The notes: generated by a model from the sequence alone, not told the origin. 64,000 nucleotides of DNA from Fibrobacter sp. UWB2 (GCF_002210425.1 NZ_MWQK01000003.1:124001-188000), one strand, 5' to 3'; numbered from the stretch's first letter, positions 23,818 through 46,627 are shown. A program made the numbers and translations.

Positions 23818-23983
23818 TCAAGGCTAAACTTTTGAATTTTCGCAGAAATATGAGAAACGCAAGAAAAGATATAGGGAGGGCCTATAACATATTACATGGA
23901 CTCATCATTTGGGCCACTTTATACCATTTTTCATGAGAAAATGACCAACAATGCCAAAATCTTGTGTTTTTCGAAAAAAAGCA

Positions 23984-24061
23984 CATTTAGAGAGTTATAC
24001 CGCAAAAAAGTGCTTATAATTCTCTAAATGTCTTGTTTTTGAGGACATTTAGAGAATTATA
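23984..24061 (-). promoter_or_regulatory. Three-copy CATTTAGAGA repeat with a perfect 18-bp stem, downstream of jetD
   Basis: TATAATTCTCTAAATGTC (24015-24032) and its exact complement (24044-24061) flank an 11-nt loop. A third, near-identical arm (CATTTAGAGAGTTATA) lies at 23984-23999. Read on the minus strand, a shorter AGCAC...GTGCT pairing is followed by a run of seven T. This could be a 3'-end structure or terminator of the Wadjet transcript, or a small RNA. The rest of the 352-nt gap (23741-24092) shows no gene. Confidence 0.5.
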
Positions 24062-24092
24062 GAGAGGTTTTTGTTAAATAGCCATTTTCATA

Positions 24093-28570: not shown

Positions 28571-28572
28571 TA

Positions 28573-29226
28573 TTATTCCTCCTCTTCTTCTGCATCAAAG
28601 TTATCTTCGGCAACATCCTCGTTTTGAGGACCCGCATTCATCATTCTTTCTCGCACTCCAATAACAAATGTCGCGAATTCAGATTCATCTAAAGCAAATT
28701 GAATAGACGGATAAAGAACAATCACTCGTTCATTATCAGAGGCATTCCAATTTACAAAAATCAGATTGTATCTTGCAAATAGTTGAAGCGCGTTTTTCAA
28801 ATTACTTTTAACGTCAAAAGCGCCCTTGAATTCAAACTTTTCCAATTCAGCATTCAATTCAGGGAAAGTCGTCGTGATTTGCTTGGATAAGGAGCCTGAT
28901 TGAATTTTATCCATATACAAGGTCCACAAGCAACAAAGAATGATGCTTTGGAATTTATTAAACCTCTGCTTGGAAACAACAACATCGGCACTATTATTCT
29001 GAAGCATTACAACTCCATTGTCCCTCACAACAATATCAAAGCCAATCAAGTTCAAATAATCCGAAAAAAGCCCTTCGTTTGATTTAACAAAGAAGAACAT
29101 CTTGCGATTATCATCGTCTATGTCTCGAACGATGAAGGTTTCTTTCAAAAGTCGGCGGCAGCACTTTTTAAACACCAACTGTTCAGAAGAAGTGAGATCG
29201 TCCCACATTTCATTAATTGTTGACAT
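28573..29226 (-). CDS. jetB: Wadjet subunit JetB (MukE-like)
   Basis: About 217 residues, the KITE/MukE-like winged-helix subunit that bridges JetA and JetC. I chose ATG 29226 (MSTINEMWDDLTSSEQLVFK) because it has a GGAGGG site and only a 14-nt overlap with jetA; an upstream in-frame ATG at 29286 would overlap by 74 nt. The winged-helix-like part includes VKSNEGLFSDYLNLIGFDI. The acidic C-terminus (DVAEDNFDAEEEEE) is notable. The content is closer to the DUF6063 form of type II systems than to DUF4194, but I cannot confirm this by alignment. Confidence 0.8.
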   Translation of the reverse strand: MSTINEMWDDLTSSEQLVFKKCCRRLLKETFIVRDIDDDNRKMFFFVKSNEGLFSDYLNLIGFDIVVRDNGVVMLQNNSADVVVSKQRFNKFQSIILCCLWTLYMDKIQSGSLSKQITTTFPELNAELEKFEFKGAFDVKSNLKNALQLFARYNLIFVNWNASDNERVIVLYPSIQFALDESEFATFVIGVRERMMNAGPQNEDVAEDNFDAEEEEE

Positions 29227-30622
29227 CTTTTTTTGCCCTCCAATGCCGAATCTTAAATTCGTCTGACTCAATAAAATCTTCATCAATTTCTATCAGGTAT
29301 CCGTTTTCGCGAGCGTATGTTACTGCAGCCATAGACGCAAGAACATCTTTTTTTTCGTCCAGACTAAGATTTAAACTGTCTATCTTGCCATTAACGGATT
29401 GACTATCCAAGAATTTTTTCATCAGTTCTTTGGAATACGGATTATATGATTCATTCTGCAATTGGCGTTTTTGACGTTCTCGCTCTTCAACGCTCATCTC
29501 GATTACATCAGCCTCGATATTCGATTGAATACTTTGGTTTTTGTGAGGATATTGCAAAGATGTTCTATCTACAAATTCATAATCATGAATATGGAAAAGA
29601 TTTTGGATTTCTTCGTCTATCTTATTCAACTTATCTTCATCAAAATTTTGGACTAGATATCGTATAGTTTCTTCTACATTTCCACGGTTATCCTTACCCT
29701 TATTTCGAAGAATACGTTCTCGTGCAACCGCAATTTTAATATACGCATTAATTTGATCCTTAATACGTTTCATAATCTTATTGTAATCGTCATGGATAAA
29801 GCGTCTGGTGCTATCCAGCATCCTTACAACTTTATCTTCTGCTGCGCTTCTGGAACAGCCTTCCTCATCCATAACGCTTTGCGTAAGGGATCCAAAATAT
29901 CCGATTCCTTTGAATTCCTCTAATCGCCTAGATATCTTTTCACGATATAGATGGATATTTTGTTGCTGAACAAGGCGCGAATACTCTTTGATAAAGTCAC
30001 CGTCACAATATTTGATGATATTCTCCGTCAAACTGACCAAGGAACCTTCTCGGAGCATGCCTTCAATGATTTTTTTGATAGAGGTGGCAAGTTTCTTCAG
30101 TGCCGAGGAAAGTTTGCGGGCTTCATCATACACTGGTGTTAGAATCAGTTTATAAGGATTCTGTTCCCCTTGCGCCCAATGTTCTAAGGTATTGAAAATG
30201 TTATAAATGGAAACAGAAAATTCTGAGCGAACAGGATTCTTTAGATTTTCAATAAACTGAGCCAAGGCAATCCCGTTATCAGGCATAACAATCATCTTTT
30301 CAAGTGTTGAATCGTCTGTTTCTTCTTCTAGCCAACCAACACTCACAAAACGTCTAATAATAAAATTCGCCTTAGCATTCCAGTCAGGTTCCAACCCCAA
30401 TTCAGTCGCATCTTCGCCCTGTATTTCAATATGATTTTCCAACAAGTAAGCGGCTATCGTATCACGAACAATATCTCGAAGAATTCTATATGAAATTTCG
30501 TCATCAAAGAGCTTATAGATTTTCAACAACAATTCCGAATAAACAGCTTGATTACGGTTCCCACTACCGAGAATCGTAAAAAAATCGTTAGGAATTACAT
30601 TAAAAACACTATGCATATTCAT
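29213..30622 (-). CDS. jetA: Wadjet subunit JetA (MukF/kleisin-like)
   Basis: About 469 residues, the kleisin-like subunit. It opens MNMHSVFNVIPNDFFTILGS, which matches the start of type II JetA (formerly DUF5716) rather than DUF3375 of type I. It continues with helical segments and ends FIESDEFKIRHWRAKKDVNN. I prefer ATG 30622 or 30616; an in-frame start at 30700 gives an unlikely N-terminus. No clear ribosome binding site is seen. It heads the operon, with the chain overlapping jetB. Confidence 0.82.
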   Translation of the reverse strand: MNMHSVFNVIPNDFFTILGSGNRNQAVYSELLLKIYKLFDDEISYRILRDIVRDTIAAYLLENHIEIQGEDATELGLEPDWNAKANFIIRRFVSVGWLEEETDDSTLEKMIVMPDNGIALAQFIENLKNPVRSEFSVSIYNIFNTLEHWAQGEQNPYKLILTPVYDEARKLSSALKKLATSIKKIIEGMLREGSLVSLTENIIKYCDGDFIKEYSRLVQQQNIHLYREKISRRLEEFKGIGYFGSLTQSVMDEEGCSRSAAEDKVVRMLDSTRRFIHDDYNKIMKRIKDQINAYIKIAVARERILRNKGKDNRGNVEETIRYLVQNFDEDKLNKIDEEIQNLFHIHDYEFVDRTSLQYPHKNQSIQSNIEADVIEMSVEERERQKRQLQNESYNPYSKELMKKFLDSQSVNGKIDSLNLSLDEKKDVLASMAAVTYARENGYLIEIDEDFIESDEFKIRHWRAKKDVNN

Positions 30623-30844
30623 GAGGAAATATACGCAAAAATCTTGACACTTTAATGACAAAATCAACAATTTTTCATCATTCAGCCAGAACAAGAGCAT
30701 TCATAGTACCTGCTCTGCCTAATCTTCCATATTATACTTCATCTATCCATCAACAATCAAGACATAACAGCTAAAAAAGACGAACCTACTTTTATCAAAA
30801 AACTCAATAAAACAGATGAAGAAAATCCACATCCATTACTTACC

Positions 30845-33820
30845 CTATTTCCAAAACATTTTTTCCTTATATCCGCAAGCAGGATAATTAGAACATCCAA
30901 CAAAATTATATCCATTATAGGCTTTCCGTTTTACAAGGAAACCGCCACATTCAGGACATATTTTAGGACTTGACAAAATAGTCACGTCTCTTTGCGCATA
31001 CCTACACCGAGGAAAATTAGAGCATCCCACAAAAGTTTTTCCATCATGTTCAACTTTTAGCAAGTCTCCAGTTTTGCAAAGAGGGCATTTCGTCTGTTTT
31101 TCGCTAATTTTTCTCCTTGTTGATTTAAAGAATACTGATGTAGATTCTGAGAATTCCTTGAAAAAAAGCGATGGATTCTTGTTGTCCACAAGGACATAGG
31201 TTCTATTTTTAGTTCGGGTAATAGCAACATAAAACAGGCGACGTTCTTCTGCAAATCTGTAATCTTCTGCATTTGTAAGAACAAAGTTCAAAACAGGATC
31301 ATCAATTATCTGATTCGGGAACCCAAGTTTGTCATTTCTAAAATTCAGCAAAATAACATTATCCGCTTCCAACCCCTTTGATTTGTGAACGGAAAGGAAT
31401 TGTATTTGCAACTTCGGATTCTGAACGTACTCTAGTGCATCTACACCATTTTTCCGAATCTTTCGGAACAAGCCTGTATCTTTTGCAATTTCTATATCGT
31501 AATTCGTTCGTCCCAAAAGTAAAATGGACGAATTCGCTCCATAATCCAAAGCAATTTTATTGATTATCGCTTGTAACGCATTTTTCGGATTGTCGTCGAA
31601 CCCCCAAAAAACAAGGGGATAATCTAACTTTTTATCGGAGCGTAAACTTTTCTTGAGTTGGAGCGGATTTTGCAAAATAAAACGCGATGCTTCATCGATT
31701 AATTTTTGCGAATTACGATATGTTTTCTCAATTTTTAATATTTTCGTTTTTCCAAAATACTTTGCAATATCAGTGAATAATGAAATATCGCTACCGGCAA
31801 ATCGATATATAGATTGCCAGTCATCCCCTACACAGAATAACTTTGCTTTTGTTTTATCAACAATTGCCTTCAACAAATTAAATCTTGCCTTTGAAATATC
31901 TTGATATTCATCTACAATCACATATTTATACAAAGGAATATCGCAACCAGCATTAACATTCTCTGTTGCATTGTTTATCATATCAGAGAAATCAATTGAA
32001 TTATTGGCTATTAAGTATTTTTGATATTCTTCCAATATCACTCTTATTATATTCAAAAAAGTGTTGTTTCTTCTTTGCAAGAATTTGTTATCTTCTGACG
32101 AAAGCCAATCTTTCCAATTATCAATCGTTTCTATTGTATAATTATTAGACTTAAAAAGTACAATAAACGTTCCGCACAGCTTCACAAACTCAGAAAAATA
32201 CTTATTCGTCTTGGTTGCATAAACAGTATTGAAAATATCCATGAAGTCTCGTGATTTCAGAACAACTCCATTTTGTTTCAAAATCTCTTCAAGCTTTTGT
32301 AAAAGCACCCCTTCAGAATTGTAGTATGAATAGGTTTCAATCAACTTGGTATTATTCTGCTTGTGAAGTTCTCTTTTCCAATCAATTCCATCTAAGTATT
32401 TTTTTGCTTCAACGGGCGAAAGCCATGGAACCGTATTGTTCCTTGTGATTCCAAAGTGTTCCAAATAAATATCATAATCTTTCAAATAAAAATCAGGTCT
32501 GTACGCTTTTCGCAAGGGATCAGAATTTTCAAATGGGTAGAGTTTTTCATATTCGTAATTTACACCGTTTAAAAAAAGAAAATTTGCGATTTGAACTTCT
32601 TCGAGACTTTTAACTTTTTCATTTTTTAGCGTTGTATGATTCTGCGACTTCTTTATTTTTTCTTCTTGAATATACTTCTCTTGATCATATTTCGACCTAA
32701 GCGTTTCCAAATCCACGCTTTTTTCGGCCTCATACATTTCGCCCAATGAGGAATAATCCTCCATATTCTTAGGGATATCAATATAGTATGCAAAATACTC
32801 AATTAAATTTTTTACCAATTCAGGATAATTGACCAATTCCTTTTCAAAAAAGTTATGTATAAATTCATTAAAAAGAGATTCATCAAGAACATCGGGTCTT
32901 TTTCCAACAGCACTTTTGATTATATCAAGACCCAATTTATGAAAAGTTGTTGATTTAACAGGGATTCCCAACTTTCCCTGAATTCTATCGGTCATTTCTT
33001 GAGCAGATTTTTTCGTAAACGAAATAAGCAGTATTTCTTCCGGACTTACATTCTTTACGTCACATAAATACTTGACCTTACCTGCAATCGTTAGTGTTTT
33101 TCCGCTACCAGCTCCTGCAAGCACAAGAATTCTATCTTCATCGGTTACGACAGCTTCTCTTTGTTGCATATCTAAGGACTTTCCATCTATGTTGGAAAAC
33201 AGATAATCATATTTTTGAGATTCCTGAGCAAAAAACGTTTCATTCGCTTTTTCCAAATAATTTGAAAAATCCTTATAGATTATTTTAAAAAGATTTATTT
33301 TTCCATATTCTTCATCATTCGCTTTTAAATTGCAAGTTGCAACATCTTGAGACAATTTTTCCCACTTCTGACGAAATATTTCTCCATCAGCCTCCGTGAC
33401 ATAACGACTTGTCAAGAAACTAAGTTCATCAAGAAAAACATTCACATATTGTATAAGCGATTTGAGACATTCCTTACGCTTAATCTCTGCATTTGACGCA
33501 AAAACGAGTCCTGGGAAATCCTTGTACTGTTTCTTAAAATCTTCTAGCTTTACAAAATCTTCAACTTTTGACGAAATGCCACTATACCTTTGTAATTCAT
33601 GATATAGAACTTTATACTTTAAAATAAAAGCATCTCTTTCAGCATCCTGAATATAATGCTTAAATAACCCGTCAAATTCAACGAAAAACGAATCACATAC
33701 TTCTATGAAACTCCGTACTTTTTCTTCAAATTCTTTAGCAAGCCGTTTTCGATGAGCTACATAACAAGCAACAAATATTACTAGCAATACAATTATTAAA
33801 ACAAACATACCTAGCGACAA
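30845..33820 (-). CDS. Helicase IV (HelD)-like UvrD-family helicase with inserted nuclease-like domain and two Cys4 zinc fingers
   Basis: A 991-residue protein. It has an N-terminal hydrophobic helix (FVLIIVLLVIFVACYVAH) and a HelD-like stalk. Walker A LAGAGSGKT lies near residue 236, DExx-type VDEYQDIS near 640, and the late motif YVAITRTK matches helicase IV. Between the first motifs is an insertion (about 400-460) with EVQIANFLFLNGVNYEYE and RPDFYLKDYDIYLEHFGI, the pattern of a PD-(D/E)XK nuclease. Two topoisomerase-type zinc fingers end the protein (CPLCKTG...GCSNFPRC and CPECGGF...GCSNYPAC). It follows the HNH gene by 3 nt. The start is TTG 33820 behind AAGGGG, or ATG 33808. Confidence 0.85.
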   Translation of the reverse strand: MSLGMFVLIIVLLVIFVACYVAHRKRLAKEFEEKVRSFIEVCDSFFVEFDGLFKHYIQDAERDAFILKYKVLYHELQRYSGISSKVEDFVKLEDFKKQYKDFPGLVFASNAEIKRKECLKSLIQYVNVFLDELSFLTSRYVTEADGEIFRQKWEKLSQDVATCNLKANDEEYGKINLFKIIYKDFSNYLEKANETFFAQESQKYDYLFSNIDGKSLDMQQREAVVTDEDRILVLAGAGSGKTLTIAGKVKYLCDVKNVSPEEILLISFTKKSAQEMTDRIQGKLGIPVKSTTFHKLGLDIIKSAVGKRPDVLDESLFNEFIHNFFEKELVNYPELVKNLIEYFAYYIDIPKNMEDYSSLGEMYEAEKSVDLETLRSKYDQEKYIQEEKIKKSQNHTTLKNEKVKSLEEVQIANFLFLNGVNYEYEKLYPFENSDPLRKAYRPDFYLKDYDIYLEHFGITRNNTVPWLSPVEAKKYLDGIDWKRELHKQNNTKLIETYSYYNSEGVLLQKLEEILKQNGVVLKSRDFMDIFNTVYATKTNKYFSEFVKLCGTFIVLFKSNNYTIETIDNWKDWLSSEDNKFLQRRNNTFLNIIRVILEEYQKYLIANNSIDFSDMINNATENVNAGCDIPLYKYVIVDEYQDISKARFNLLKAIVDKTKAKLFCVGDDWQSIYRFAGSDISLFTDIAKYFGKTKILKIEKTYRNSQKLIDEASRFILQNPLQLKKSLRSDKKLDYPLVFWGFDDNPKNALQAIINKIALDYGANSSILLLGRTNYDIEIAKDTGLFRKIRKNGVDALEYVQNPKLQIQFLSVHKSKGLEADNVILLNFRNDKLGFPNQIIDDPVLNFVLTNAEDYRFAEERRLFYVAITRTKNRTYVLVDNKNPSLFFKEFSESTSVFFKSTRRKISEKQTKCPLCKTGDLLKVEHDGKTFVGCSNFPRCRYAQRDVTILSSPKICPECGGFLVKRKAYNGYNFVGCSNYPACGYKEKMFWK

Positions 33821-33823
33821 CCA

Positions 33824-35005
33824 TCACCCCTTAAATTTCCATATTTCATATCCTTGCCGCCTTGCGGAATCATACACAGGTTGCATGTTCTTCCGTAAAA
33901 TGTTGACAAATTCATTCTTACTGTTACCGGGTTTAAACAATTCCGTTTCAGCCCATATTGAATGGATGTTGTCGCGGTAGCATTTCTCGAAGCGGCTGCG
34001 AACGAATTCGTCATCCCACATCAAACGGTACATTTCATATTGGTTGTCAGCAAATCGGTTGAAAAATGTCCAATGCGGCAGGCGATTATTCTTGGAAGAG
34101 TTTAACGAAGAATCCATCGGGATCAGATTCCACAATTCATCGTTCATCACGAACGACCATGGAATAAAATGGTCAATATCGTAATCATTTTCAATAGGCT
34201 TGTTTGTATAGATGTCAAGAATCGTTTCTCGTTGCAGGATTATTTTCCATAGTTTGCGGACTTGTTCAAGTTTTCGAACACTCGCATCCATAGGCGAGAG
34301 CTTATATACAATCCCAGGGACTTCGGGATTGTTGACCTGCAGCCACTTGGATTTTTCATGTTGAATCCATCCGAGTAACGCAACAGAATTATCTTGGATA
34401 TATTGCTTCCAAACGGGATTGAACACAACGACACGATTCAGTTGCGAGCCTTCGTCAAAGGTGTACGGCAGCAAAATACGACGATTCACAGCTTGCGTAT
34501 ATCCGACAATTTCCGAAGCACTATTCCAATTAACTTTCGCGCCACCTCCCTGTTCGTAACGATTGTAGAATCCAGCCAGAGCACGATAGGGTACGTATTT
34601 AGTTAACGCAACTTTATACTTTTTTATATCTGTGTTATATTGCTTAATGGCGTTCTTGATTTCGACCTTCGAGGCATTGGATGGGAGTTCACTTTTAGCA
34701 GCCAACTGCACGATGGCAAGTTCCAACGCATCACGAAATTCACCTTTCAGCATCCCGCTCAAGTGAACATGATATTCCAGCACAGTGTACCAGGCATTTG
34801 CAATCATCTCATCGATAATAGCATCGAATGTCGCCTGCGCAAAATCTTCATCAATAAGTTTGACAATCGCCTCAAGCCAGTAAAACTTGTAGCAATATGT
34901 CGGATTTTTCATCATAAGCGAAAAGCACTCGACATCAAGCTGATTACAATAAGGCGAACTAATATCTAAAGCTAGGCTTTGCGGGAAAGAATTATATTCA
35001 TCCAT
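33824..35005 (-). CDS. HNH endonuclease domain protein
   Basis: A 393-residue protein. The HNH core is near residues 270-305: NDYDIDHFIPWSFV then ELWNLIPMDSSLNSSKNNRL, giving the Asp-His, Asn and Asn-Lys positions of a metal-dependent HNH nuclease. The N-terminal 250 residues are helical with no named family. It starts inside the 3' end of the methyltransferase gene (34-nt overlap) and is followed after 3 nt by the helicase gene, so the three form one operon. A restriction-like DNA cleavage role is inferred. Confidence 0.8.
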   Translation of the reverse strand: MDEYNSFPQSLALDISSPYCNQLDVECFSLMMKNPTYCYKFYWLEAIVKLIDEDFAQATFDAIIDEMIANAWYTVLEYHVHLSGMLKGEFRDALELAIVQLAAKSELPSNASKVEIKNAIKQYNTDIKKYKVALTKYVPYRALAGFYNRYEQGGGAKVNWNSASEIVGYTQAVNRRILLPYTFDEGSQLNRVVVFNPVWKQYIQDNSVALLGWIQHEKSKWLQVNNPEVPGIVYKLSPMDASVRKLEQVRKLWKIILQRETILDIYTNKPIENDYDIDHFIPWSFVMNDELWNLIPMDSSLNSSKNNRLPHWTFFNRFADNQYEMYRLMWDDEFVRSRFEKCYRDNIHSIWAETELFKPGNSKNEFVNILRKNMQPVYDSARRQGYEIWKFKG

Positions 35006-35562
35006 TTTTCGTCTTTCCTATTCGGTCTAACATCTGTAGAAATCCAATATTCTCTACATTGTAATTCTGGAACAAGTGTAAGCATTTCATTTAGACGATT
35101 TTCCGTAAAATCTATAAAAAAGCGACCTTGACGTTCGCCAGAAAAATCACCATACTTGAAGGATGTATAAATTACTCCAGTATTTTTCAGTGCAACGGCC
35201 ATTTTATGCAATACTGAAATCAAGTCATCCCATTGCAAATGGAGAATAGAGGCGCAGGCCCAAATTCCATCATATTCGTTTACTGATGCAAATTCTTGAA
35301 AATACAACTGCTTAACAGGAATTCCCGTATAGGCACTTGCCAATCGGCAAAATTCCCTAGAACCATCAACAGCATCAACATCATAACCTTTATCCAAAAA
35401 ATATTTGGTATCCCGACCAGAACCACATCCAAAATCGAGAATTTTCGCATACGATGGCATATACCGCAGGAACCGCTCCTGCGTCGCAGAAAAATCAACA
35501 CAAACAGTGCTACGAGAATACTCTAGAGCATTTCTATTATAATATTCAATGGTCGATGTCAT
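34972..35562 (-). CDS. Class I SAM-dependent methyltransferase
   Basis: A 196-residue protein with motif I ILDFGCGSGRDTKYFLDKGY, an acidic motif II (VDAVDGS) and YDGIWACASILHLQWDDL at the motif IV/post-IV place. This last form is typical of small-molecule or non-DNA methyltransferases (no DPPY or NPPY), so DNA modification is not evident. It is first in the operon methyltransferase-HNH-helicase, with a 34-nt overlap onto the HNH gene. What it methylates is unknown. Confidence 0.8.
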   Translation of the reverse strand: MTSTIEYYNRNALEYSRSTVCVDFSATQERFLRYMPSYAKILDFGCGSGRDTKYFLDKGYDVDAVDGSREFCRLASAYTGIPVKQLYFQEFASVNEYDGIWACASILHLQWDDLISVLHKMAVALKNTGVIYTSFKYGDFSGERQGRFFIDFTENRLNEMLTLVPELQCREYWISTDVRPNRKDEKWMNIILSRKA

Positions 35563-35655
35563 ACAACATCTTTAAAATACTTTATTTCAGCCACTCTCAT
35601 AAACTTATTTTTCAAAATGTCACTTCAAATCAAGGAAATCTTAGAGAATGACTAC

Positions 35656-35686
35656 TAAAAAAAGCCGGATGTATAAAACAATCCGA
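35656..35686 (-). terminator. Intrinsic terminator of the Rpn gene
   Basis: On the minus strand CGGATTGT pairs with ACATCCG (one bulge), followed by TTTTTTT. It lies 30 nt after the Rpn stop. Confidence 0.65.
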
Positions 35687-35715
35687 CCCATTACATAAAC
35701 AGCAACAACGTGAAT

Positions 35716-36642
35716 TTATAGAGCCTTGACCTCTTCTTCGGTAAGGCCGGTAAATTCAATAATTTCTTTAACAGGCATATTCTTGCTTTTCATCTTCTTC
35801 GCAATTTCACGAGTATTTTTAGATACATTTTTAGAAATCTCCGCGTTGATTTCATCCGCGAATTCCTCAAAGAAGCCCCGTCTAAGGACATTATGATCCC
35901 ATCTGTCGTGATGCATTTTCTGATAAGCCTCGAATTCTTTTTTACTGAATTTAGATACTTTGGAACTCTCCGTCAACTGTTTGAATTTTTTGTCAGAAAG
36001 CTCTTCGGGGAGCTCTCGCAGCTTATCCAAATAACGGAAAAAGAACAGCCATTTGCTAAGATTGTCCTTGCCGATAAAGAACGGGACCTTCGAAAGTTCA
36101 ATAATCGTATAGTTATACGCATCCATAATCTGTTCGCCGGTTTCCAAATCCAAAGTCGTAGCGCGGTGAACAATTCGATTGTCATTTTCGAAAATGCGGT
36201 ACTGAGCAAGAGCAATGACATAAGTCGGCTTCACGTCATAATCCCATTCACCGGGTTCCGCCTGGTTCGCAACAAGTTCACTCGCATAGAACGCAAGACG
36301 TTTCAAGAAGTTGTCCATTTCACGAATCTGAACTTCAATTTCTATCAAATTTCCAGCATCGTCTTCGCAGTGTAAGTCAAAAATCGCCGTGCGGGACACC
36401 TTACTTCCGCTCAGATTTTTAGCCACATTGCGGGTTTTCACGCTCTTGATGGGATGCTTGAGTTGCGGAGCCAAAAGGTCGTTCAACAGGTTCACTAGGT
36501 TTTCGCGGCTGACAGGTTTGTCTGGGTCAAACGCTTTCTTAAAAGCGAGATCAATCAACAAATTTGCATACGGACTTTGTTCGCCCGGCTTTACGAGATA
36601 GTCTTCGAGTGACTTGTGAGTAGTAACATTTTTCTTTTTCAT
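35716..36642 (-). CDS. Rpn-family PD-(D/E)XK nuclease (TIGR01784 type)
   Basis: A 308-residue protein of the transposase-like PDDEXK group: ANLLIDLAFKKAFDPDKPVS, then RTAIFDLHCEDDAGNLIEIE (Asp and the E-x-E strand), then RLAFYASELVANQ, YVIALAQYRIF and the C-terminal helical tail NMPVKEIIEFTGLTEEEVK. It differs in sequence from the Rpn gene at 13328-14263, so the two are separate acquisitions or old paralogues. It borders the defence genes on the right and is divergent from xpt. Confidence 0.88.
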   Translation of the reverse strand: MKKKNVTTHKSLEDYLVKPGEQSPYANLLIDLAFKKAFDPDKPVSRENLVNLLNDLLAPQLKHPIKSVKTRNVAKNLSGSKVSRTAIFDLHCEDDAGNLIEIEVQIREMDNFLKRLAFYASELVANQAEPGEWDYDVKPTYVIALAQYRIFENDNRIVHRATTLDLETGEQIMDAYNYTIIELSKVPFFIGKDNLSKWLFFFRYLDKLRELPEELSDKKFKQLTESSKVSKFSKKEFEAYQKMHHDRWDHNVLRRGFFEEFADEINAEISKNVSKNTREIAKKMKSKNMPVKEIIEFTGLTEEEVKAL

Positions 36643-36722
36643 GCGGCAATATATGCGAAATTCATGCCAACCGAAAAAATGCTAATTTCACGCGAAAAAC
36701 GGCAAATTGCAATTTGCGAAAA

Positions 36723-36756
36723 AGTGATTAATCGATTTAATCACTGATTAATCACT
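36723..36756. promoter_or_regulatory. Triple AGTGATTAA/TTAATCACT repeat upstream of xpt
   Basis: AGTGATTAA (36723-36731) and TTAATCACT (36737-36745) form a perfect palindrome, followed by a second TTAATCACT at 36748-36756. The cluster lies between the divergent Rpn and xpt genes and has the look of a repeated operator, for example for a purine or xanthine regulator. No purine riboswitch was recognised. Confidence 0.45.
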
Positions 36757-36888
36757 TCACGCAACACATGTTCAAGCGTCCCGTTTTTCGACATTTCGCC
36801 CACTTCTAAGGAAATTCCGACAATCTCACCCCATAATGTAAGCAATTCGAATAATTGCAAAAATGGCGCTTTTTGCTAGATTTCATGC

Positions 36889-38884: not shown

Positions 38885-40060
38885 TTACTTTTCCCCAAAA
38901 CTCACGCCGAATGACTTTGGCATCACGATTTCCTTATAGGCGTTCATCAGGTAGTCATCGGTCATTCCAGAGACGTAATCAGCAACAATGCGCGGGAGCG
39001 ATGTCGTTTCTTTGTACTTTTCGCCAAGCGATTCACACCAGTGATTGATTCCTGTTGCCTTTTTCACGCCAGACTTGAGTTCATCAAGGCATTCTTCCAA
39101 GACGGTACGGAACATCATCCTGATTTTTTCGTCCTGGGTTGACTTTTTCGGATTCAAATAGATGTTTTTGTAGTTCCAGTTTTTCAGCTGGTTAAGCGCA
39201 TCGAAAACTTCAGGCGAAAACACAAGCGTTTCTTTGTCTAAACTATTGTTGACAAGGTCTGTAATAAGCGTGTTGACGATTTCGCTATTTTTGCTACCGA
39301 GAACTTTCGTGATTTCTTGGGGGATATCTTCGCGCTTCACTAGTTTCAAGATGATGGCATCTTCGATGTCGCGGCCAACGTACGCAATCACGTCCGAGAT
39401 TCGCATGACACATCCTTCCAATGTCATCGGGACCATCTCTTTCGATTTCAGCGTTCCGCTTAAGCTGTTTCTGTATTCTTCCAGCAGTTTTTCTGGAGTC
39501 TTGCTACGGTTGCAGCCGTATTCGTTTTTCAGGATTTCGCCGTTGTGGCAGATGATTCCGTCGAGCACTTGCGCGGTAAGGTTCAGTCCCTTGCCGTACG
39601 CTTCGAGATCATTGAACAATCTAAAGCTTTGAACATTGTGTTCAAAAATTCCTTCTCCGCAATCTTGCAAAAACTTCGAGACAATCCGTTCGCCATCGTG
39701 CCCAAAAGGCGTATGGCCCACATCGTGACCTAGCGAAATCGCCTCAATCAAATCCTCGTTCAGATTCAAAAAGCGTCCAATGGTCCTTGCGATTTTAGCG
39801 ACCAGCTGCACGTGCAGCACACGATGCGTGATGTGGTCATTTTCAACAAGGTAAAATGCCTGGGTTTTGTCAATGTATCGGCTATAGCAATAGGAATGGA
39901 TAATCTTATCCGCATCGCGGGAAAAGTTCGGGCGGATATCGTCCGGCACTTCGTGATAGCGAATTGCGGAAGCGGACTTGCAGGCGTATTCTGCAAGCGA
40001 GTTTTCCTTTTCCATCAAGCGGGATTCAATTTGTTTTTTGACTGAGGCGTTCCATTCCAT
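38885..40060 (-). CDS. dGTPase-like HD-domain nucleotide triphosphohydrolase
   Basis: A 391-residue HD hydrolase expected to split a dNTP to nucleoside plus triphosphate. The family motifs are clear: SRYIDKTQAFYL, THRVLHVQLVAKIAR (first His), the metal HD in SLGHDVGHTPFGHDGER (about residues 110-125) and the later ICHNGEIL and MRISDVIAYVGRDIED segments. It starts 5 nt after the stop of the 2TM-Rossmann-RyR gene, so both are on one transcript. dGTPases are housekeeping enzymes but some deplete dNTPs as phage defence; the pairing here raises the second possibility. Confidence 0.88.
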   Translation of the reverse strand: MEWNASVKKQIESRLMEKENSLAEYACKSASAIRYHEVPDDIRPNFSRDADKIIHSYCYSRYIDKTQAFYLVENDHITHRVLHVQLVAKIARTIGRFLNLNEDLIEAISLGHDVGHTPFGHDGERIVSKFLQDCGEGIFEHNVQSFRLFNDLEAYGKGLNLTAQVLDGIICHNGEILKNEYGCNRSKTPEKLLEEYRNSLSGTLKSKEMVPMTLEGCVMRISDVIAYVGRDIEDAIILKLVKREDIPQEITKVLGSKNSEIVNTLITDLVNNSLDKETLVFSPEVFDALNQLKNWNYKNIYLNPKKSTQDEKIRMMFRTVLEECLDELKSGVKKATGINHWCESLGEKYKETTSLPRIVADYVSGMTDDYLMNAYKEIVMPKSFGVSFGEK

Positions 40061-40065
40061 AAAAA

Positions 40066-41712
40066 TTACCCGTTCATAATGTATTCGGCATTTTCGAGAA
40101 TGTACGAATCTTTGGACTTTTGTTCTTCGGGGAGGCGGTCAAACGGAATGATGTCATGACGTGTGAAAGTCCGTTCATCGGTGGGACCCGAGCGGTAACC
40201 CATAAGGAGCATGGACATCATCCAGCGGCGATGTTCTGCGTCGCGCAACAAAGCATCATCGTCCGTGATTTCAAAACAGCGTTTGCGGAGCGGGAGCGCA
40301 TTCGCGCAGTAAATGGCAGACGTTTTATCGGCTTCGCTCAAGCGGTACCACATTTTTTCTTCGGTGTCGCGAGTATCAGGATTTTCGTTCCTTTCGCGAA
40401 CGTAGTTTGCACGCTGGCCGCGTTCCACGCGTTTGGAGTGCACGAATTCCTTCATTTCGTCGATATCACCCATGATGCGCACGTAACCGTACATTCCGCT
40501 TTCGTTGATGCGCTTGATAATGTCATCGTTTGCTTCGCGCCAGTAGACGGCAATGTCGGCGTTGTCGTAAACAGCTCGCGGCAAATGCACAAGTGTCGAG
40601 ATGGCCTTGGAAGCGTCTTCCTTGCAAATGCAAACGACAAGGCGTTCCCTTGGGCTTGCGGCCACGGCTGCAATAAAATTGCGCGCCAGGTCTGCTTCGC
40701 AATAGGCATCGACAAAGTTCCATTCGACATCCAGGTAATCGCCTCGCGTTGTCTCCGGGTCGTGCGTAACCTTGTTTCCATTGGCGTCGACGTAGGTGTA
40801 CTTCGAGAGTCTAAAAAGCCCCATGCGAGAAACGACCAAGCGGTCTACCCACTTTTCACAATCTTCATCCACAAACGTAATGCAGGTCTTCAAGTTTGTA
40901 CGTTTGAAATTCGGATAATGGCAAACGTTTGCAACGGCAAAGGCAACCGCCTGCGCAATCGGGCCGGTTCCCAATAGTACAACGTGCAAGCGTTCATTTT
41001 CGGCTTCGCGAATAGTCGGCAAAAAGTCCGTACCGACAAGCAACTGTTCCGACATGAATTCGTATTCGTTAAAAACGTCAACCAGCAAATGGCCCTTATT
41101 CTGTTCAGGGGCCTTCAGGTACCACAAAATTTCGGAGGTCGAGGGGTCGCTCAACAACAAATGGCAATGGATATCGCGTGGGGACTTTTCGCACACGTTG
41201 CGCAATACTTCGATGCAGTGCAAATTGCGCGAATCGCGTTCGGGGCCGTCTTCGCCAATCACCAAAATTTGGCTTGCCAAAAGAGCGCCTGCATAAATCA
41301 GATCTTCTTCGTTTTCGTAATCCTTTTTATAATGGATAAAATGCCCATCGATATCGCGGCGGCTCACAACAACTATCGGGCGCTTATCGTCCTTGAGCGC
41401 ACGCAATATACTTTTAAGCTGGTGGCCCGCACCAAGTACAAGCACATGGCCACGGACATCGACATGCTTTTTGCCTTCACGCATGGATTCGGACGTGTTC
41501 TTGAACACATTGATCATCACGCTGATGAAGAGCACCGCGAAAACGACGTAGCCCGACAAGAAGCCTTTCCAGCCGAGCGTCTTTTCGCCAAGCACCCATG
41601 AACCAAGCAAAACGCCAATGACAAAGATAACCAGCGACAGGCCAAGCAAAATCAAGAGTTTCTTGGCGATGCCATTCGACCAGGCGCCTTTAATAAGTCC
41701 GTTATAATTCAT
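40066..41712 (-). CDS. 2TM protein with Rossmann (RCK/TrkA-N-like) domains and a C-terminal RyR domain
   Basis: 548 residues. Two TM helices come first (about 19-43 and 47-71), then a TrkA-N/RCK-like nucleotide-binding fold (VRGHVLVLGAGHQLKSILRAL, about 85-210). A second Rossmann-like unit follows (LHVVLLGTGPIAQAVAFAVA, about 240-360). The C-terminus (about 485-545) has the pattern of the RyR domain: DAEHRRWMMSMLLMGYRSGP, then HDIIPFDRLPEEQKSKD. RyR domains in bacteria are thought to bind nucleotide-like ligands. Architecture suggests a ligand-gated membrane channel or sensor. It is first in an operon with the dGTPase-like gene and has a palindromic promoter. Confidence 0.7.
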   Translation of the reverse strand: MNYNGLIKGAWSNGIAKKLLILLGLSLVIFVIGVLLGSWVLGEKTLGWKGFLSGYVVFAVLFISVMINVFKNTSESMREGKKHVDVRGHVLVLGAGHQLKSILRALKDDKRPIVVVSRRDIDGHFIHYKKDYENEEDLIYAGALLASQILVIGEDGPERDSRNLHCIEVLRNVCEKSPRDIHCHLLLSDPSTSEILWYLKAPEQNKGHLLVDVFNEYEFMSEQLLVGTDFLPTIREAENERLHVVLLGTGPIAQAVAFAVANVCHYPNFKRTNLKTCITFVDEDCEKWVDRLVVSRMGLFRLSKYTYVDANGNKVTHDPETTRGDYLDVEWNFVDAYCEADLARNFIAAVAASPRERLVVCICKEDASKAISTLVHLPRAVYDNADIAVYWREANDDIIKRINESGMYGYVRIMGDIDEMKEFVHSKRVERGQRANYVRERNENPDTRDTEEKMWYRLSEADKTSAIYCANALPLRKRCFEITDDDALLRDAEHRRWMMSMLLMGYRSGPTDERTFTRHDIIPFDRLPEEQKSKDSYILENAEYIMNG

Positions 41713-41732
41713 GAAACGCTCCCGATAAATCC

Positions 41733-41750
41733 AACTATAATATTATAGTT
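41733..41750 (-). promoter_or_regulatory. 18-bp perfect palindrome over the -10 box of the RyR-dGTPase operon
   Basis: AACTATAATATTATAGTT is its own complement and contains TATAAT on the minus strand about 20 nt before the ATG at 41712. Its position at the promoter makes it a candidate operator, so the operon is likely controlled separately from sbcC upstream. Confidence 0.5.
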
Positions 41751-41768
41751 AATTTCTCGGGATCCGAT

Positions 41769-44700
41769 TCAAGGCCGGGACGACACAACACCAGCTCCGC
41801 TGAGGATACTGCGGCCACCGCAAGGCGTAACGTCAATATGCGTCCTGAGTTCGCTCTTGACCAAATCCACGTGCGTGATGACGCCCAAAAGCTTGCCCTT
41901 TTCCTGTTGCATTTTTTGGAGCACGATGACCGTTTCCTGGAGCATCTTGGAGTCTAGCGTTCCAAAGCCTTCATCGAGGAACATGGAATCAATACGCACA
42001 TTGCGGCTGGCAAGTGTCGAAATTCCAAGCGCCAACGAAAGACTCACGAGGAACCCTTCGCCACCGGAAATGTTGTCAATCGGGCGCACGGCATCGCTAT
42101 TGTCATGGTCCACAAGCTGGATGTTGAGCGTATTCGGCTCGGTCACCATCTCGTAACGCGGGAACATATCGCGCAGGTAGCCATTTGCTATTTTCAGCAA
42201 ATTGCGGAGCGTAATCGTCTGGATGAACTTGACAAACACATCGCCGTTGCCCGTATCAAGCCTGTTGCCGTTAAACCAGCGCTGCATCTGTTCCCAGTCG
42301 CTGCGCTTAGACTTGAGCACGGTCAATTCCGCCTGCATATCACTGAACGTCTGGCGCTGTCTTTCGTCATTCTTTTTCTGTTCCGTCCATGTCGCAAGAT
42401 TTACGGTGCATTCGTTCAGCTTGGACTTTGCAGAATCGCGATTCTGCTTTGCCACATCTTCGGATTCTTCGAAGTTGCGCTTTTGCTGATGCTCTGAAAG
42501 CTGGTCGTTGAAATTCTTGACCGATGTCTGCGCAGTCATCCAGTTGTCATCCACGGACTTTTGCTTTTGCTGGAGCGTTTTGCGTTCCGATTCCGGGAGT
42601 TTCGCGGTCATGAATTCCTGCTCATTCGCAAAATTCTTCGAAGCGAGATTCTCGAGGAAAAGCGCCTGGAGTTCAGCAAGTTTCGGTTCAGCATCTGCAA
42701 TGTGGCGGTTCAATTCCGCAATGGAATTGTCAAGCGCAATTTTCGCTTCGCGCATTTGCTGTTCCAAACGGCGGGCTTCATTGGACACACGTTCAGCCGT
42801 GTCGCGCAAGGTTCTCGCCTTGTTGCGTTCATCATCCACAGACTTTTCACCAAAGAGCTCGTTACGGCTCTTTTCGAGCGTGGCGAGATTTTCGCGAAGG
42901 CCGTCTAGCTTGCGCTTGGTTTCATCGAGTCTCGACTGAGCCTGTTCAAGATTTTCCTTGAGCTGCTCCACATTCGAGCGGAACGTTTCCAAGTCGCTTT
43001 CGACCTTGACCTTTTTATCTTGAGCCTTGCTCCACCAGTCATTCTTCTTTTCGAGTTCGACAAGGAGCGCGTCCATATCTTCCATGCGGATATTCGAGAA
43101 CCACGGTTCAAGCAATTTTTCGATTTTCTGCGAGAACTCCTGCACCTTATCTTGTGCCTTTTTAAGAGTTTCCTCTGTACGGCTCAGGTTGCCCACGAGA
43201 TTTGCTCTTTCAACAGCGGCACTGTTGACCTTGTTTTGCAAGTCATCGGCATTCTCTTTTTTTTGCAAATATGTTGTCTTAAGCGTCTGCAGATTCTGCA
43301 AAACCTCACGAGCATTTTCAAGAGTCACGCTTCCAAGAGTCGCGCATTCCTTCCACGGCTCAAGTTTAGCGTTCAAAAGTTCAAGCGAGGCCGCTTCGGC
43401 AATGGACTCATCATTCTGCTTTTGCGAACTTTCGCGAAGCAATTCTTCAAGATTCTGCTGTTGCGTTGCAAAGCCATCCAGCTTGCGCTGGACCTGTTCC
43501 ATTTCGCCATTGATCTTACGCAACTTGGCGGCAAAATCGTTCAAGCGTTCCGCGCCATTTTCAACCTTTGCCGAATCGTCACACGAGAGGTGTTCACGCG
43601 AGCCGCAAACAGGGCACGGTTCGCCCGGCTTCAACGCGTGGCGGAGTTCAGCAACAACAACGGGAATATCATCCTGGATAATCGTTTCCTTCTCATTCAG
43701 GAGCGTTGACAATTTCGTCTGAGCCTGTTCACGTTCACATGTCAAACCAGCAATTTGCTTTTGCTTAGATTCAATATCACTCTGCAAACGCACAGATTCA
43801 CCGTGATGGCGTTCCGCATCGCTAGCACAGCCATTCATTTCGGGCAACAAATTCACAAGGTCCGCATCGATCTGATGTTCGTTCAAATAATCCCGCAACG
43901 CACTCAAATCTTGCTTTTGCTGTTCGCTTGCTTCATCAAATTTCTGCAGCCCTTTTTTCAGGGCATCGAAATGCAGAGATTCAACAGCAACTGTAGCGTT
44001 TTCATGGTCTCTTTCCAGGGCAATCGCTTTCAAGAGAGGCAACAAGCCATCAATCGCATCATCTTTTTCGTTGTCTTCAATGTACTTTTTGACTTTTTCA
44101 AGAGCGCCTTCATTTTCAGAAATCCGGTCACCGAACTCCTTGATTTTCGTCTGGGTCGTGCTAATTTCAGATGCAATTTTCACGACATCAGCGTCCGCAT
44201 TTTTCACCTGCGTACGTGCATTTCGAATATCGCCATCCAGCGTAGAAACCTGCTGCCAGACAGATTCATTGGCAACATATTCTGCCTTGCATTTTTCAAA
44301 TGCGGCCTGCTTTTCGCCATTATCCTTTGCAGCACTTTCGAGTTTTTCTTCGGCTTCGGGGAGTCGCTTTTGGCACTCGCCGAGTTGCATTTTCATGTGT
44401 TCAAGATTTCCACGCACAGAATTGAACTCTGCATACGACGATTCCACTTCCTGAGCGCGCAATGCGCGTTCCAACTTTTCGCGGTTCGGTTCAAATTCAG
44501 CCTTGGCGCGTTCTGCAGTTACGAGCAGCCCCTTGGCCGTGTCCAAATGCGATTCAATGCCATGCAGAGTTTCGAACCAAGTGCAAATATTGCGGAAGCG
44601 TTCTTCTTCATGAGCGAGCGTATCCTTTTGAGAAGTCGCCTCTTCAATTTTTTTGCCCAATGCATCAAGCTCTTCTTCAGTCAGCAACGTGACTGCGCCC

Positions 44701-45320
44701 ATCTTGGTTTCAACGTCTTCGACAGCCCTGTTTGCATTAGCATACAAGTCATGAACCGCCACTGCAATTTTTCTGTAGATCCCATCGCCCGTCAGCTTTT
44801 CAAGAATCGCCGCACGTTCATTTTCATTGCATTTCAGGAACTTGTTGAACTCGCCCTGCGCAAGCATCATGGACTTGGTGAACTGTCCAAAGTCAAGACC
44901 AATCACGCGCGTCATCGTCGATTCGATTTCGGCCTGCTTAGAAAAAGACGCTTCAATAGTCTGCGAAGTTTCATTCGTCAGCGCCCAGGAATATTTCTGC
45001 AACTTATTCGTTCTCAAAGAGCGGTGCTGATTCCAGCATGCCGAATAGACAACGCCCTTGCATTCAAAAGTCACTTTTGCAGAACAGCTCTTGGCCCCGT
45101 AAGTCATCACCTCATTGGAATCGCCCACGATGGCGCCCAAGCGCGGCGTCTTGCCATAAAGTCCAAGGCAAATCGCATCGAGAATCGACGTTTTTCCGGA
45201 ACCAGTCGGGCCCGAAATGCAGAACATGCCGCTATTCGCAAAATCCGGCGATTCAAAATCGATCGTCCATTCGCCGGCAAGGGAATTGATATTACTGAAT
45301 TCAACCTTCTTAATCTTCAT
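41769..45320 (-). CDS. sbcC: SbcC, ATPase subunit of the SbcCD nuclease (Rad50-like)
   Basis: A 1183-residue SMC-type ATPase that, with SbcD, cleaves DNA hairpins and end-blocked DNA. The N-terminal Walker A is SGPTGSGKTSILDAICLGLY. Long coiled coils flank the zinc hook CPVCGSREH (about residue 570). The C-terminal signature is SGGEGFLVSLSLALG and Walker B is MFLDEGFGTLD. It starts 11 nt after sbcD, with GGGAG upstream. The last residues (GAGVVSSRP) are encoded by a degenerate copy of the dispersed repeat. Confidence 0.95.
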   Translation of the reverse strand: MKIKKVEFSNINSLAGEWTIDFESPDFANSGMFCISGPTGSGKTSILDAICLGLYGKTPRLGAIVGDSNEVMTYGAKSCSAKVTFECKGVVYSACWNQHRSLRTNKLQKYSWALTNETSQTIEASFSKQAEIESTMTRVIGLDFGQFTKSMMLAQGEFNKFLKCNENERAAILEKLTGDGIYRKIAVAVHDLYANANRAVEDVETKMGAVTLLTEEELDALGKKIEEATSQKDTLAHEEERFRNICTWFETLHGIESHLDTAKGLLVTAERAKAEFEPNREKLERALRAQEVESSYAEFNSVRGNLEHMKMQLGECQKRLPEAEEKLESAAKDNGEKQAAFEKCKAEYVANESVWQQVSTLDGDIRNARTQVKNADADVVKIASEISTTQTKIKEFGDRISENEGALEKVKKYIEDNEKDDAIDGLLPLLKAIALERDHENATVAVESLHFDALKKGLQKFDEASEQQKQDLSALRDYLNEHQIDADLVNLLPEMNGCASDAERHHGESVRLQSDIESKQKQIAGLTCEREQAQTKLSTLLNEKETIIQDDIPVVVAELRHALKPGEPCPVCGSREHLSCDDSAKVENGAERLNDFAAKLRKINGEMEQVQRKLDGFATQQQNLEELLRESSQKQNDESIAEAASLELLNAKLEPWKECATLGSVTLENAREVLQNLQTLKTTYLQKKENADDLQNKVNSAAVERANLVGNLSRTEETLKKAQDKVQEFSQKIEKLLEPWFSNIRMEDMDALLVELEKKNDWWSKAQDKKVKVESDLETFRSNVEQLKENLEQAQSRLDETKRKLDGLRENLATLEKSRNELFGEKSVDDERNKARTLRDTAERVSNEARRLEQQMREAKIALDNSIAELNRHIADAEPKLAELQALFLENLASKNFANEQEFMTAKLPESERKTLQQKQKSVDDNWMTAQTSVKNFNDQLSEHQQKRNFEESEDVAKQNRDSAKSKLNECTVNLATWTEQKKNDERQRQTFSDMQAELTVLKSKRSDWEQMQRWFNGNRLDTGNGDVFVKFIQTITLRNLLKIANGYLRDMFPRYEMVTEPNTLNIQLVDHDNSDAVRPIDNISGGEGFLVSLSLALGISTLASRNVRIDSMFLDEGFGTLDSKMLQETVIVLQKMQQEKGKLLGVITHVDLVKSELRTHIDVTPCGGRSILSGAGVVSSRP

Positions 45321-45331
45321 CGAGCACTCCC

Positions 45332-46627
45332 TTAAACATTGTCCTGAGCTTTGGCGACAGCTTCGTTAAACAGACTGATAAACTTATTGTACTGATTTTT
45401 CACAACTTCAGATTCATCGCTTTCTTGAGCGTTCGATGCAATGAGCATTCTGAAATAATCTTCCTTGGTGTACTGCTTTGTAGATTCCACGCAGTCATCA
45501 AACGCATTTGCACCACGCAAAACCTCTCGAGAAACGCGATGGCGCTTGACCACAAAATGCTTGCCCGATTCTTCGGCTTCGAGCGCATCGTTCAAGTTCA
45601 CAAAATTACCCGTTGTCAAAAGCAAGTCGACATACGTTTCCATCGGATTTGCAATGAGCTCTTTTTCAAGATTTCGCAAATCGCGCTTGAGAGTTTCAAG
45701 ATCGCCCTTGAACTGTTCAAAACGCATCGATTTCGGGACTTCCGCCTTTTCAACAACAGGCGCCTCATTCGGCTTCACATCGACCGTAAGCACAACGCGC
45801 TTGCAATTCGATTCATCAAAGCCCATCACGAACGGCGAGCCCGAATAGCGCACCTTCGGATTCTTGGCAACCATCGAAGCATAATGAATATGCCCTAGCG
45901 CCACATAATCGAGTTCACTCGGGAACGTCGAAATATCCACATTGCCAAGCGTCCCGATAACTTCACGGACACCATCTTCTACAGAATTTTCAGGAATTGC
46001 AGCATTGCCATCCGCGCTAGATTCTCGCTCATCGCCGTTACGGCCCGAAAGGTTCGAAGCGTACAGATGCCCGGTCGCAATAATCGGAATATTCCTATCC
46101 CCGCGCAATTCTACGGCATAGCGGTACACATCACCATAAAGGCGTTTCAGTAAATCTTCGTCAGAAACCGCATCTCCACAATCCTTATAGAACTGCTCCA
46201 GTTCCAAATTGCGCATGAACGGCACGGCGCAGCAAATGCCGATAACATTTTCATCGCCATCCTTGAGCTCGACCACCAAATCTTCAACTTTGCGGTCATT
46301 GATTGAACCCACGACCTTGATGTTCAGCGCTTCGAGAACACCCCCCGGCGCATCAAGAAGCGAGCCGGAATCATGGTTACCGCCAACGACAACGACATTG
46401 GTGCAGTTCGTTTTCAGGAGCGAAGCCAAGAATTTGTAATACTGCGTTTTCGCCACATTCGAAGGATTCACGACATCAAAAATGTCGCCTGCAATGATAA
46501 GCGCCTGGGCACCGACGCGTTCAATTTCACTTTTCAGCCATTTCAGGAACGCAGCCGTTTCATCCGTGCGGTCAATGTCGTGCATCATATTGCCAAGATG
46601 CCAGTCTGCGGTATGGATAAATTTCAT
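45332..46627 (-). CDS. sbcD: SbcD, nuclease subunit of SbcCD (Mre11-like)
   Basis: A 431-residue metallophosphoesterase nuclease. The metal-binding motifs are in order: TADWHLGNMMHD, IIAGDIFD, VVGGNHDSGS, TGHLYAS and LGHIHYAS. The capping domain and a C-terminal SbcC-contact region follow. It is first in the sbcD-sbcC operon, transcribed from the promoter region near 46640-46675. Confidence 0.96.
   Translation of the reverse strand: MKFIHTADWHLGNMMHDIDRTDETAAFLKWLKSEIERVGAQALIIAGDIFDVVNPSNVAKTQYYKFLASLLKTNCTNVVVVGGNHDSGSLLDAPGGVLEALNIKVVGSINDRKVEDLVVELKDGDENVIGICCAVPFMRNLELEQFYKDCGDAVSDEDLLKRLYGDVYRYAVELRGDRNIPIIATGHLYASNLSGRNGDERESSADGNAAIPENSVEDGVREVIGTLGNVDISTFPSELDYVALGHIHYASMVAKNPKVRYSGSPFVMGFDESNCKRVVLTVDVKPNEAPVVEKAEVPKSMRFEQFKGDLETLKRDLRNLEKELIANPMETYVDLLLTTGNFVNLNDALEAEESGKHFVVKRHRVSREVLRGANAFDDCVESTKQYTKEDYFRMLIASNAQESDESEVVKNQYNKFISLFNEAVAKAQDNV

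What the first reader, a model, noticed from the sequence alone, without database searches (positions are those of the whole stretch)
38885..41712. Operon of a 2TM-Rossmann-RyR protein and a dGTPase-like hydrolase
The membrane protein ends in a clear RyR domain (AEHRRWMMSMLLMGY, HDIIPFDRLPEEQKSKD) after RCK/TrkA-N-like folds and two TM helices. The HD hydrolase begins 5 nt later. RyR domains are proposed nucleotide-ligand sensors in conflict systems and dGTPases can starve phages of dNTPs. One protein could sense or gate while the other alters nucleotide pools. A dedicated palindromic promoter supports a unit.
Basis: partly seen in the sequence, partly recalled or inferred. Interest (0 to 1): 0.85.

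Follow-up and report, generated by a model that had tools for sequence, protein, structure and literature searches.

The report
Orphan RyR-domain membrane protein, TIR-linked kin
A rumen Fibrobacter carries a membrane protein built like a nucleotide-gated ion channel but ending in a ryanodine-receptor-type ligand pocket; its enzyme neighbour is an accident of genome rearrangement, yet its relatives in other bacteria sit beside TIR immune enzymes, which suggests that the pocket senses an ADP-ribose-type signal.

Summary
The genes are as described: 40066-41712(-) encodes 2TM + tandem RCK (CASTOR/DMI1/GsuK fold, Z 18-20) + a C-terminal RyR domain (profile E 2e-23 to RyR1), and an HD dGTPase starts 5 nt downstream. 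The "operon" is not a unit. Among 80 Fibrobacter genomes the RyR gene is in 18, the dGTPase in 23, both in 9, and they are adjacent only here. Homology to relatives breaks exactly between the two genes (40062/40063). In the relatives examined the RyR gene has its own conserved -10 box and terminator; its former downstream flank lies on another contig of this genome.
What is interesting is elsewhere. Full-length homologues in another phylum, and a divergent Fibrobacter homologue, lie next to TIR-domain genes (gaps 3-23 nt; TIR catalytic Glu intact in the ten aligned). Phage RyR domains bind or cleave 2'/3'cADPR (PMC13232231), so RyR is a plausible receptor for TIR-made signals. The window clade has lost both the TIR neighbour and the pore loop but is under strong purifying selection (dN/dS about 0.02-0.07). 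Best reading: an orphan, probably non-conducting, membrane-anchored RCK-RyR nucleotide sensor derived from TIR-coupled channel-like effectors. Defence function is inferred, not shown.

The parts
40066..41712 (-). RyR-domain membrane protein gene, 548 aa (stop codon 40066-40068)
41590..41670 (-). TM helix 1 (residues about 15-41)
   Evidence: hydropathy; AF2 model
41479..41571 (-). TM helix 2 (residues about 48-78); the loop between TM1 and TM2 is only a few residues, pore loop absent
41023..41454 (-). RCK1 / TrkA-N-like Rossmann domain (residues 87-230)
   Evidence: MthK RCK Z about 14.7 rmsd 1.8 over 114 aa, CASTOR/DMI1 Z about 20 over the tandem
40465..41007 (-). RCK2-like second Rossmann domain (residues 236-416)
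40069..40434 (-). RyR domain (residues about 427-548), pocket equivalents H494, W497, R518, D535
   Evidence: residue roles from PMC13232231
41742..41747 (-). conserved -10-like TATAAT upstream of the RyR gene (inside the 41734-41749 palindrome, which itself is not conserved)
40061..40067 (.). rearrangement junction: homology to the RyR/sbcDC locus of relatives starts at 40063-40067; homology to the dGTPase-xanthine permease-xpt locus of G004 ends at 40062
38885..40060 (-). HD-domain dGTP triphosphohydrolase-family enzyme, 391 aa; neighbour by rearrangement, not part of the RyR unit
41769..45320 (-). SbcC (Rad50-like) gene; upstream neighbour of the RyR gene in 17 of 18 genomes
45332..46627 (-). 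SbcD (Mre11-like) gene

Best explanation
The RyR gene is a stand-alone gene (own -10 box; terminator in the relatives examined) encoding a membrane-anchored, tandem-RCK gating-ring protein of the CASTOR/DMI1/GsuK fold whose C-terminal RyR domain is a ligand pocket. It descends from a wider family of 2TM-RCK-RCK-RyR proteins often encoded beside TIR-domain enzymes. In that family a TIR enzyme most likely makes an ADP-ribose-type nucleotide from NAD+; the RyR domain binds it and the RCK ring passes the change to the membrane part. In the window's Fibrobacter clade the TIR neighbour and the pore loop are gone while the pocket residues H, W and (mostly) D and strong purifying selection remain. So this member most likely still senses an ADP-ribose/adenine-dinucleotide-type ligand but acts without conducting ions itself, for example as a membrane-bound sensor/regulator or signal sink. 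The dGTPase next door was brought there by a chromosomal rearrangement and is not its partner. Shown by computation: architecture, fold, conserved pocket, TIR linkage of homologues, pore-loop loss, junction. Inferred: the ligand class, the signalling direction, and the absence of conduction.
For: RyR homology. Tandem-RCK fold: (MtDMI1 7vm8 Z 20.0; LjCASTOR Z 19.5-19.9; GsuK Z about 17.9; next rows at about 16 and below). GsuK is gated by ADP and NAD+ (PMC3510474). Pocket: E493, H494, R496, W497 invariant in 26 diverse sequences and D535 in at least 90%; equivalents H75, W78 and D117 of RyDEP contact the ligand (PMC13232231). TIR linkage: searches (of 11 loci of one genus, 9 with the TIR gene directly adjacent to an unbroken RyR gene, one with a broken RyR gene, one with a truncated TIR ORF; 6 whole loci plus one split contig in three other genera; Fibrobacter G005/G128 gap 3 nt; G063 and G162 within a few genes), TIR catalytic Glu column in all ten aligned. 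Tree: the 548-aa clade (100/100) groups with a TIR-linked Fibrobacter homologue, and TIR-linked rows lie on both sides. Pore-loop loss. Constraint: dN/dS about 0.02-0.07 against about 0.09-0.18 for SbcC/SbcD. Stand-alone unit and junction. Precedent for a TM effector with an ADPR-binding domain in Thoeris: ThsA TM-macro (PMC11204291).
Against: No TIR_2 gene was found in the window's genome, so the source of a ligand here is unknown. The H100-equivalent is R518 here (His in outgroups) and D535 is Asn in two orthologues. Only one of the phage homologues tested cleaved cADPR and two of eight did not form a stable complex (PMC13232231), so RyR homology does not guarantee this ligand. The RyR part of the model is of moderate confidence (pLDDT mostly 66-89, loop 508-518 under 50). 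Pore-loop loss was judged from sequence and a monomer model only. Joins of long branches in the tree are unsure.
Confidence: 0.55

Rival explanations
1. A dedicated RyR-dGTPase defence operon: the membrane protein senses a nucleotide signal and the dGTPase depletes dNTPs during phage infection.
For: Same strand, 5 nt gap; dGTPase family used in phage defence (PADLOC dGTPase model 7.4e-63); a Wadjet-containing island lies 3 kb away; slight excess of genomes with both genes (9 observed, 5.2 expected, P 0.027 without correction for kinship).
Against: Adjacent in 1 of 9 genomes with both genes; 9 genomes have the RyR gene and lack this dGTPase, 14 have the dGTPase and lack the RyR gene. The homology break lies exactly between the genes and the RyR gene has a terminator in relatives. 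The antiphage dGTPase model NF041026 is far below its cut-off (147 against 400 bits).
Confidence: 0.04
2. A ligand-gated ion channel: despite the short TM1-TM2 loop the protein conducts ions (or does so with a partner subunit) and the RyR domain tunes K+ or Ca2+ flux in response to a metabolic nucleotide.
For: Fold match to CASTOR, DMI1, GsuK and MthK channels; homologue L073 carries a filter-like DAGN motif as in CASTOR ADS(A)GNHA (PMC6697748); strong purifying selection.
Against: The whole re-entrant loop is missing in the clade: TM1 and TM2 nearly abut, whereas relatives have about 24-35 residues between them. In CASTOR neutralising the filter Asp abolishes current (PMC6697748).
Confidence: 0.2
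3. A functional partner of SbcCD: the RyR protein reports a nucleotide signal to, or is co-regulated with, the SbcCD nuclease in DNA-end processing.
For: Downstream of sbcDC in 17 of 18 genomes (3 with a beta-helix ORF between), and this SbcD type is in 17 of 18 RyR genomes against 4.3 expected without correction for kinship.
Against: G130 keeps the RyR gene with local sbcDC gone; own -10 box; homologues elsewhere are not near sbcDC; shared clade ancestry explains co-occurrence; synonymous divergence of the RyR gene and sbcDC is discordant between G000 and G102 (0.74 against 0.04-0.15), so they do not always travel together.
Confidence: 0.1
4. The RyR|dGTPase junction is an assembly misjoin and the two genes are not neighbours even in this strain.
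For: The junction is unique to this assembly and falls within a few bases of both coding ends.
Against: It lies inside a 475 kb contig of a 15-contig genome that is 99.99% complete; a rearrangement nearby fits a 13 kb island insertion relative to G004. Reads were not available.
Confidence: 0.1

Closest known systems
RyDEP and phage RyR (Repeat12, PF02026) domain proteins
   Same: Homologous RyR domain; H, W and D pocket positions kept.
   Different: RyDEP is a small soluble phage glycosidase (relatives are sponges) for 2'/3'cADPR; here the domain is the C-terminus of a host membrane protein with tandem RCK domains, and the second pocket His is Arg.
CASTOR/POLLUX/DMI1 channels and GsuK (2TM + tandem RCK gating ring)
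   Same: 2TM followed by a tandem-RCK ring fold, Z about 18-20; nucleotide-gated precedent in GsuK (ADP, NAD+).
   Different: No selectivity-filter loop in the window clade; a C-terminal RyR domain is present; 10-14% sequence identity.
Thoeris defence (ThsB TIR + ThsA TM-macro or SIR2-SLOG effectors)
   Same: Homologues pair a TIR enzyme with a TM protein that carries a domain of a kind able to bind ADPR-type ligands.
   Different: RyR/RCK instead of macro or SLOG; no PADLOC model hits the RyR proteins; the window clade has no TIR partner and defence activity is untested.
Ryanodine receptor Repeat12/Repeat34 domains of animal RyR1-3
   Same: Clear sequence-profile homology (E 1.9e-23).
   Different: Tandem repeats in a giant Ca2+ release channel; one domain here.
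Anti-phage dGTPases (PADLOC dGTPase, NF041026) and TIGR01353 dGTPases
   Same: The neighbour at 38885-40060 is a TIGR01353 HD enzyme.
   Different: Below the antiphage subfamily cut-off; patchy in the genus with unrelated neighbours.

Membership tests
RyR domain (PF02026) | Pfam gathering score on the protein itself (27.4 bits) | tested here: not met
   No hit at E<=1 for the window protein; orthologue G145 19.7 bits.
RyR domain (PF02026) | Homology by profile | tested here: met
   hhalign 98.1% over 125 columns against nine PF02026-locus proteins; A5 profile to RyR1 E 1.9e-23.
RyR domain (PF02026) | Ligand-pocket residues H, W, H, D (RyDEP H75, W78, H100, D117) | tested here: inconclusive
   H494, W497, D535 present; third is R518 (His in outgroups and two orthologues).
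RyR domain (PF02026) | Binds ADPR/cADPR-type ligands | not testable with these tools
   Needs protein.
CASTOR/POLLUX/DMI1-type RCK channel | 2TM followed by a tandem RCK gating-ring fold | tested here: met
   Z 19.5-20.0 over 314-321 residues to 7vm8/6o7c/6o7a/6o6j.
CASTOR/POLLUX/DMI1-type RCK channel | Re-entrant pore loop with acidic filter (ADS/AGNHA) | tested here: not met
   Loop absent in the window clade; DAGN-like motif present in homologue L073.
Thoeris | Adjacent ThsB-type TIR gene | tested here: not met
   No TIR next to the 18 orthologues; no PF13676 match in G000. Present beside homologues L056, L139, L221 and others.
Thoeris | ThsA-type effector (SIR2-SLOG or TM-macro) | tested here: not met
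   No PADLOC hit for the window RyR protein or the homologues tested.
Anti-phage dGTPase (NF041026) | Curated score of at least 400 bits | tested here: not met
   147 bits.
dGTP triphosphohydrolase (TIGR01353) | Curated score of at least 152.35 bits, HD motif | tested here: met
   179 bits; HD at residues 112-113.

The most novel reading that the evidence does not exclude
TIR + 2TM-RCK-RCK-RyR gene pairs are an unlisted Thoeris-like system in which a host RyR domain is the receptor for a TIR-made cADPR-type signal and gates a CASTOR-like membrane effector; the Fibrobacter 548-aa clade is a pore-less, TIR-less derivative kept by selection as a membrane-tethered sensor or sink for such nucleotides.
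Probability: 0.3. Interest if true: 0.82.

Novelty: new variant of a known kind. Interest (0 to 1): 0.55.

Why it matters
RyR domains of phages were recently shown to bind or destroy TIR-made cADPR isomers. A host-encoded RyR domain on a channel-like membrane protein, encoded next to a TIR enzyme in homologues, is the natural candidate for the receptor that such phage proteins imitate. It also bears on the old question of whether the RyR repeat of animal ryanodine receptors is a cADPR site. The pore-less Fibrobacter clade offers a natural experiment on what the sensing half does without the pore. It also shows that a 5-nt gap between same-strand genes can be a fresh rearrangement rather than an operon.

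Tried and rejected
RyR-dGTPase unit: rejected by the 80-genome survey and the breakpoint. Palindromic operator: the palindrome is not conserved, only the -10 core. First AF2 model (11 mostly close sequences) left most of the RyR region under pLDDT 50; repeated with 26 diverse sequences. Plasmids gave no homologue, phages only short RyR-region matches at E 0.02-0.08. BFVD search listed phage RyR proteins only at E about 0.13-0.15. Foldseek and VIA-align rows were dominated by the RCK part, so the RyR fold was not tested on its own. Literature searches for a bacterial RyR-TrkA or TIR-RyR system in the open library found only PMC13232231; a 2015 Aravind-group paper on nucleotide-centric conflict systems, recalled from memory, is not held, so prior mention there cannot be excluded. 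Empty-site comparison: RyR-less Fibrobacter genomes have other genes after pyrC, so no clean empty site was found.

Full report
OBSERVATION. The window lies in a Fibrobacter genome (3.53 Mb, 15 contigs, window = C3:124001-188000). ORF 40066-41712(-) encodes 548 aa and ORF 38885-40060(-) 391 aa, 5 nt apart. The membrane protein has two TM helices, two Rossmann domains and a C-terminal RyR domain. As a single sequence the RyR domain escapes Pfam and is only hinted at by phmmer (E 0.0036 to a RyR1 chimera). With relatives it is clear: hhalign 98.1% over 125 columns against nine RyR-domain proteins taken from PF02026-hit loci, and an alignment profile hits RyR1-3 with E down to 1.9e-23. The neighbour is a TIGR01353 dGTPase-family HD enzyme.

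THE PAIR IS NOT A UNIT. The RyR gene (548-aa form) is in 18 of 80 Fibrobacter genomes (same genus set), the dGTPase (at least 72% identity) in 23, both in 9, and only in the window genome are they adjacent (places compared). The 17 other RyR loci have variable downstream genes, never the dGTPase (one locus, G018, is cut by its contig end). Dissimilar neighbours also surround the dGTPase elsewhere; in G004 it sits beside the same xanthine permease and xpt genes as here but without the RyR gene. BLASTN shows homology to the G004 dGTPase locus ending at window 40062 and homology to RyR loci of relatives starting at 40063-40067. In three relatives examined (G004, G001, G102) a GC-rich stem followed by T residues, of intrinsic-terminator type, follows the RyR stop codon directly or within about 70 nt. 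The usual downstream flank (lipoprotein gene, pyrC) is on contig C5 of the window genome. So the RyR gene is normally monocistronic and the dGTPase was placed behind it by a rearrangement (or, less likely, a misassembly).

WHAT IT IS. A second AlphaFold2 model from 26 diverse sequences (mean pLDDT 79, pTM 0.78; first attempt) matches the tandem-RCK gating rings of MtDMI1 and LjCASTOR (Z about 20, 314-321 residues) and the GsuK channel (Z about 17.9). GsuK is activated by ADP and NAD+ (PMC3510474). Homologues L073 and L006 and CASTOR-like channel proteins of other phyla (L098-L103) keep a loop between TM1 and TM2, in L073 with a DAGN motif like the CASTOR filter ADS(A)GNHA, whose Asp is required for current (PMC6697748). 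In the window clade the loop is gone.

TIR LINKAGE. Full-length 2TM-RCK-RCK-RyR homologues outside the phylum came from a search centred on G229. In one genus (11 loci) the TIR-domain gene is directly next to an unbroken RyR gene in 9, next to a broken one in 1 (L230), and is a truncated ORF in 1 (L225). In three further genera it is adjacent in 6 whole loci and on one split contig. Gaps measured in five of these loci and the Fibrobacter locus were 3-23 nt, and all ten aligned TIRs share the catalytic Glu column. Two Fibrobacter genomes with a 47-49% identical homologue (G005, G128; near-identical, one event) have a TIR gene 3 nt downstream. G063 and G162 have TIR genes within a few genes. Exceptions: G265 (L140), G118 (L073) and the whole window clade. 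A TIR-like prokaryotic STING gene lies near L232, a SLOG/TrkA-N relative. The tree puts TIR-linked rows on both sides of the window clade, but long branches make deep joins unsure. No TIR_2 gene was found in the window genome. PADLOC and NCBIfam have no model for the RyR proteins tested.

MECHANISM. Phage RyR domains bind or cleave 2'/3'cADPR through H75, W78, H100 and D117 (PMC13232231). The window protein keeps H494, W497 and D535 and has R518 in place of the second His; E493, H494, R496 and W497 are invariant in 26 sequences. The gene is under strong purifying selection (dN/dS against the window copy 0.021-0.070; SbcC/SbcD 0.093-0.184). I infer that TIR-linked homologues are receptors/effectors for a TIR-made ADPR-type signal, in the manner of Thoeris ThsA TM-macro proteins (PMC11204291), and that the Fibrobacter clade is an orphan, probably non-conducting derivative that still senses such a nucleotide. 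Its ligand source and output are unknown. The steady sbcDC neighbourhood (17 of 18) is probably positional: G130 retains the RyR gene with sbcDC gone from that site, and dS of the RyR gene and sbcDC is discordant between G000 and G102.

LIMITS. Presence/absence statistics are not corrected for kinship. Ortholog counts depend on genome completeness. The RyR fold was shown by sequence profiles, not by a separate structure search. No experiment bears on defence.

Noticed in passing
window 24093-30700 (-): Wadjet genes JetD, JetC-like SMC, DUF4194 (JetB-like) and JetA in order.
   Followed up: partly
window 23834-36854: About 13 kb present here but absent from the matching site in G004 (L048); holds Wadjet, a UvrD helicase, an HNH nuclease, a methyltransferase and a PD-(D/E)XK transposase-family gene: looks like a defence island.
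   Followed up: partly
L134, L135, L136, L137: Genomes with clusters of SLOG-like-RyR, AAA-ATPase-RyR and RCK-RyR proteins, several RyR genes per cluster.
   Followed up: partly
L232:471-1499 and 4968-7976: A TIR-prokaryotic STING protein near a SLOG/TrkA-N protein related to the RyR family.
   Followed up: no
L089:2519-7550: Tubulin-like and von Willebrand A genes next to the L073 homologue that keeps a DAGN filter-like motif.
   Followed up: no
L008, L009, L010, L079, L080, L084, L085: In a subclade a TPR protein of about 676 aa follows the RyR gene within a few to about 50 nt.
   Followed up: partly
L075 against window 40066-46627: RyR gene dS 0.74 to G102 while SbcD dS is 0.04 and SbcC 0.15: a recombination boundary between sbcC and the RyR gene.
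   Followed up: partly
G098:C117 and G123:C5: dGTPase orthologues with one in-frame TAA each.
   Followed up: no
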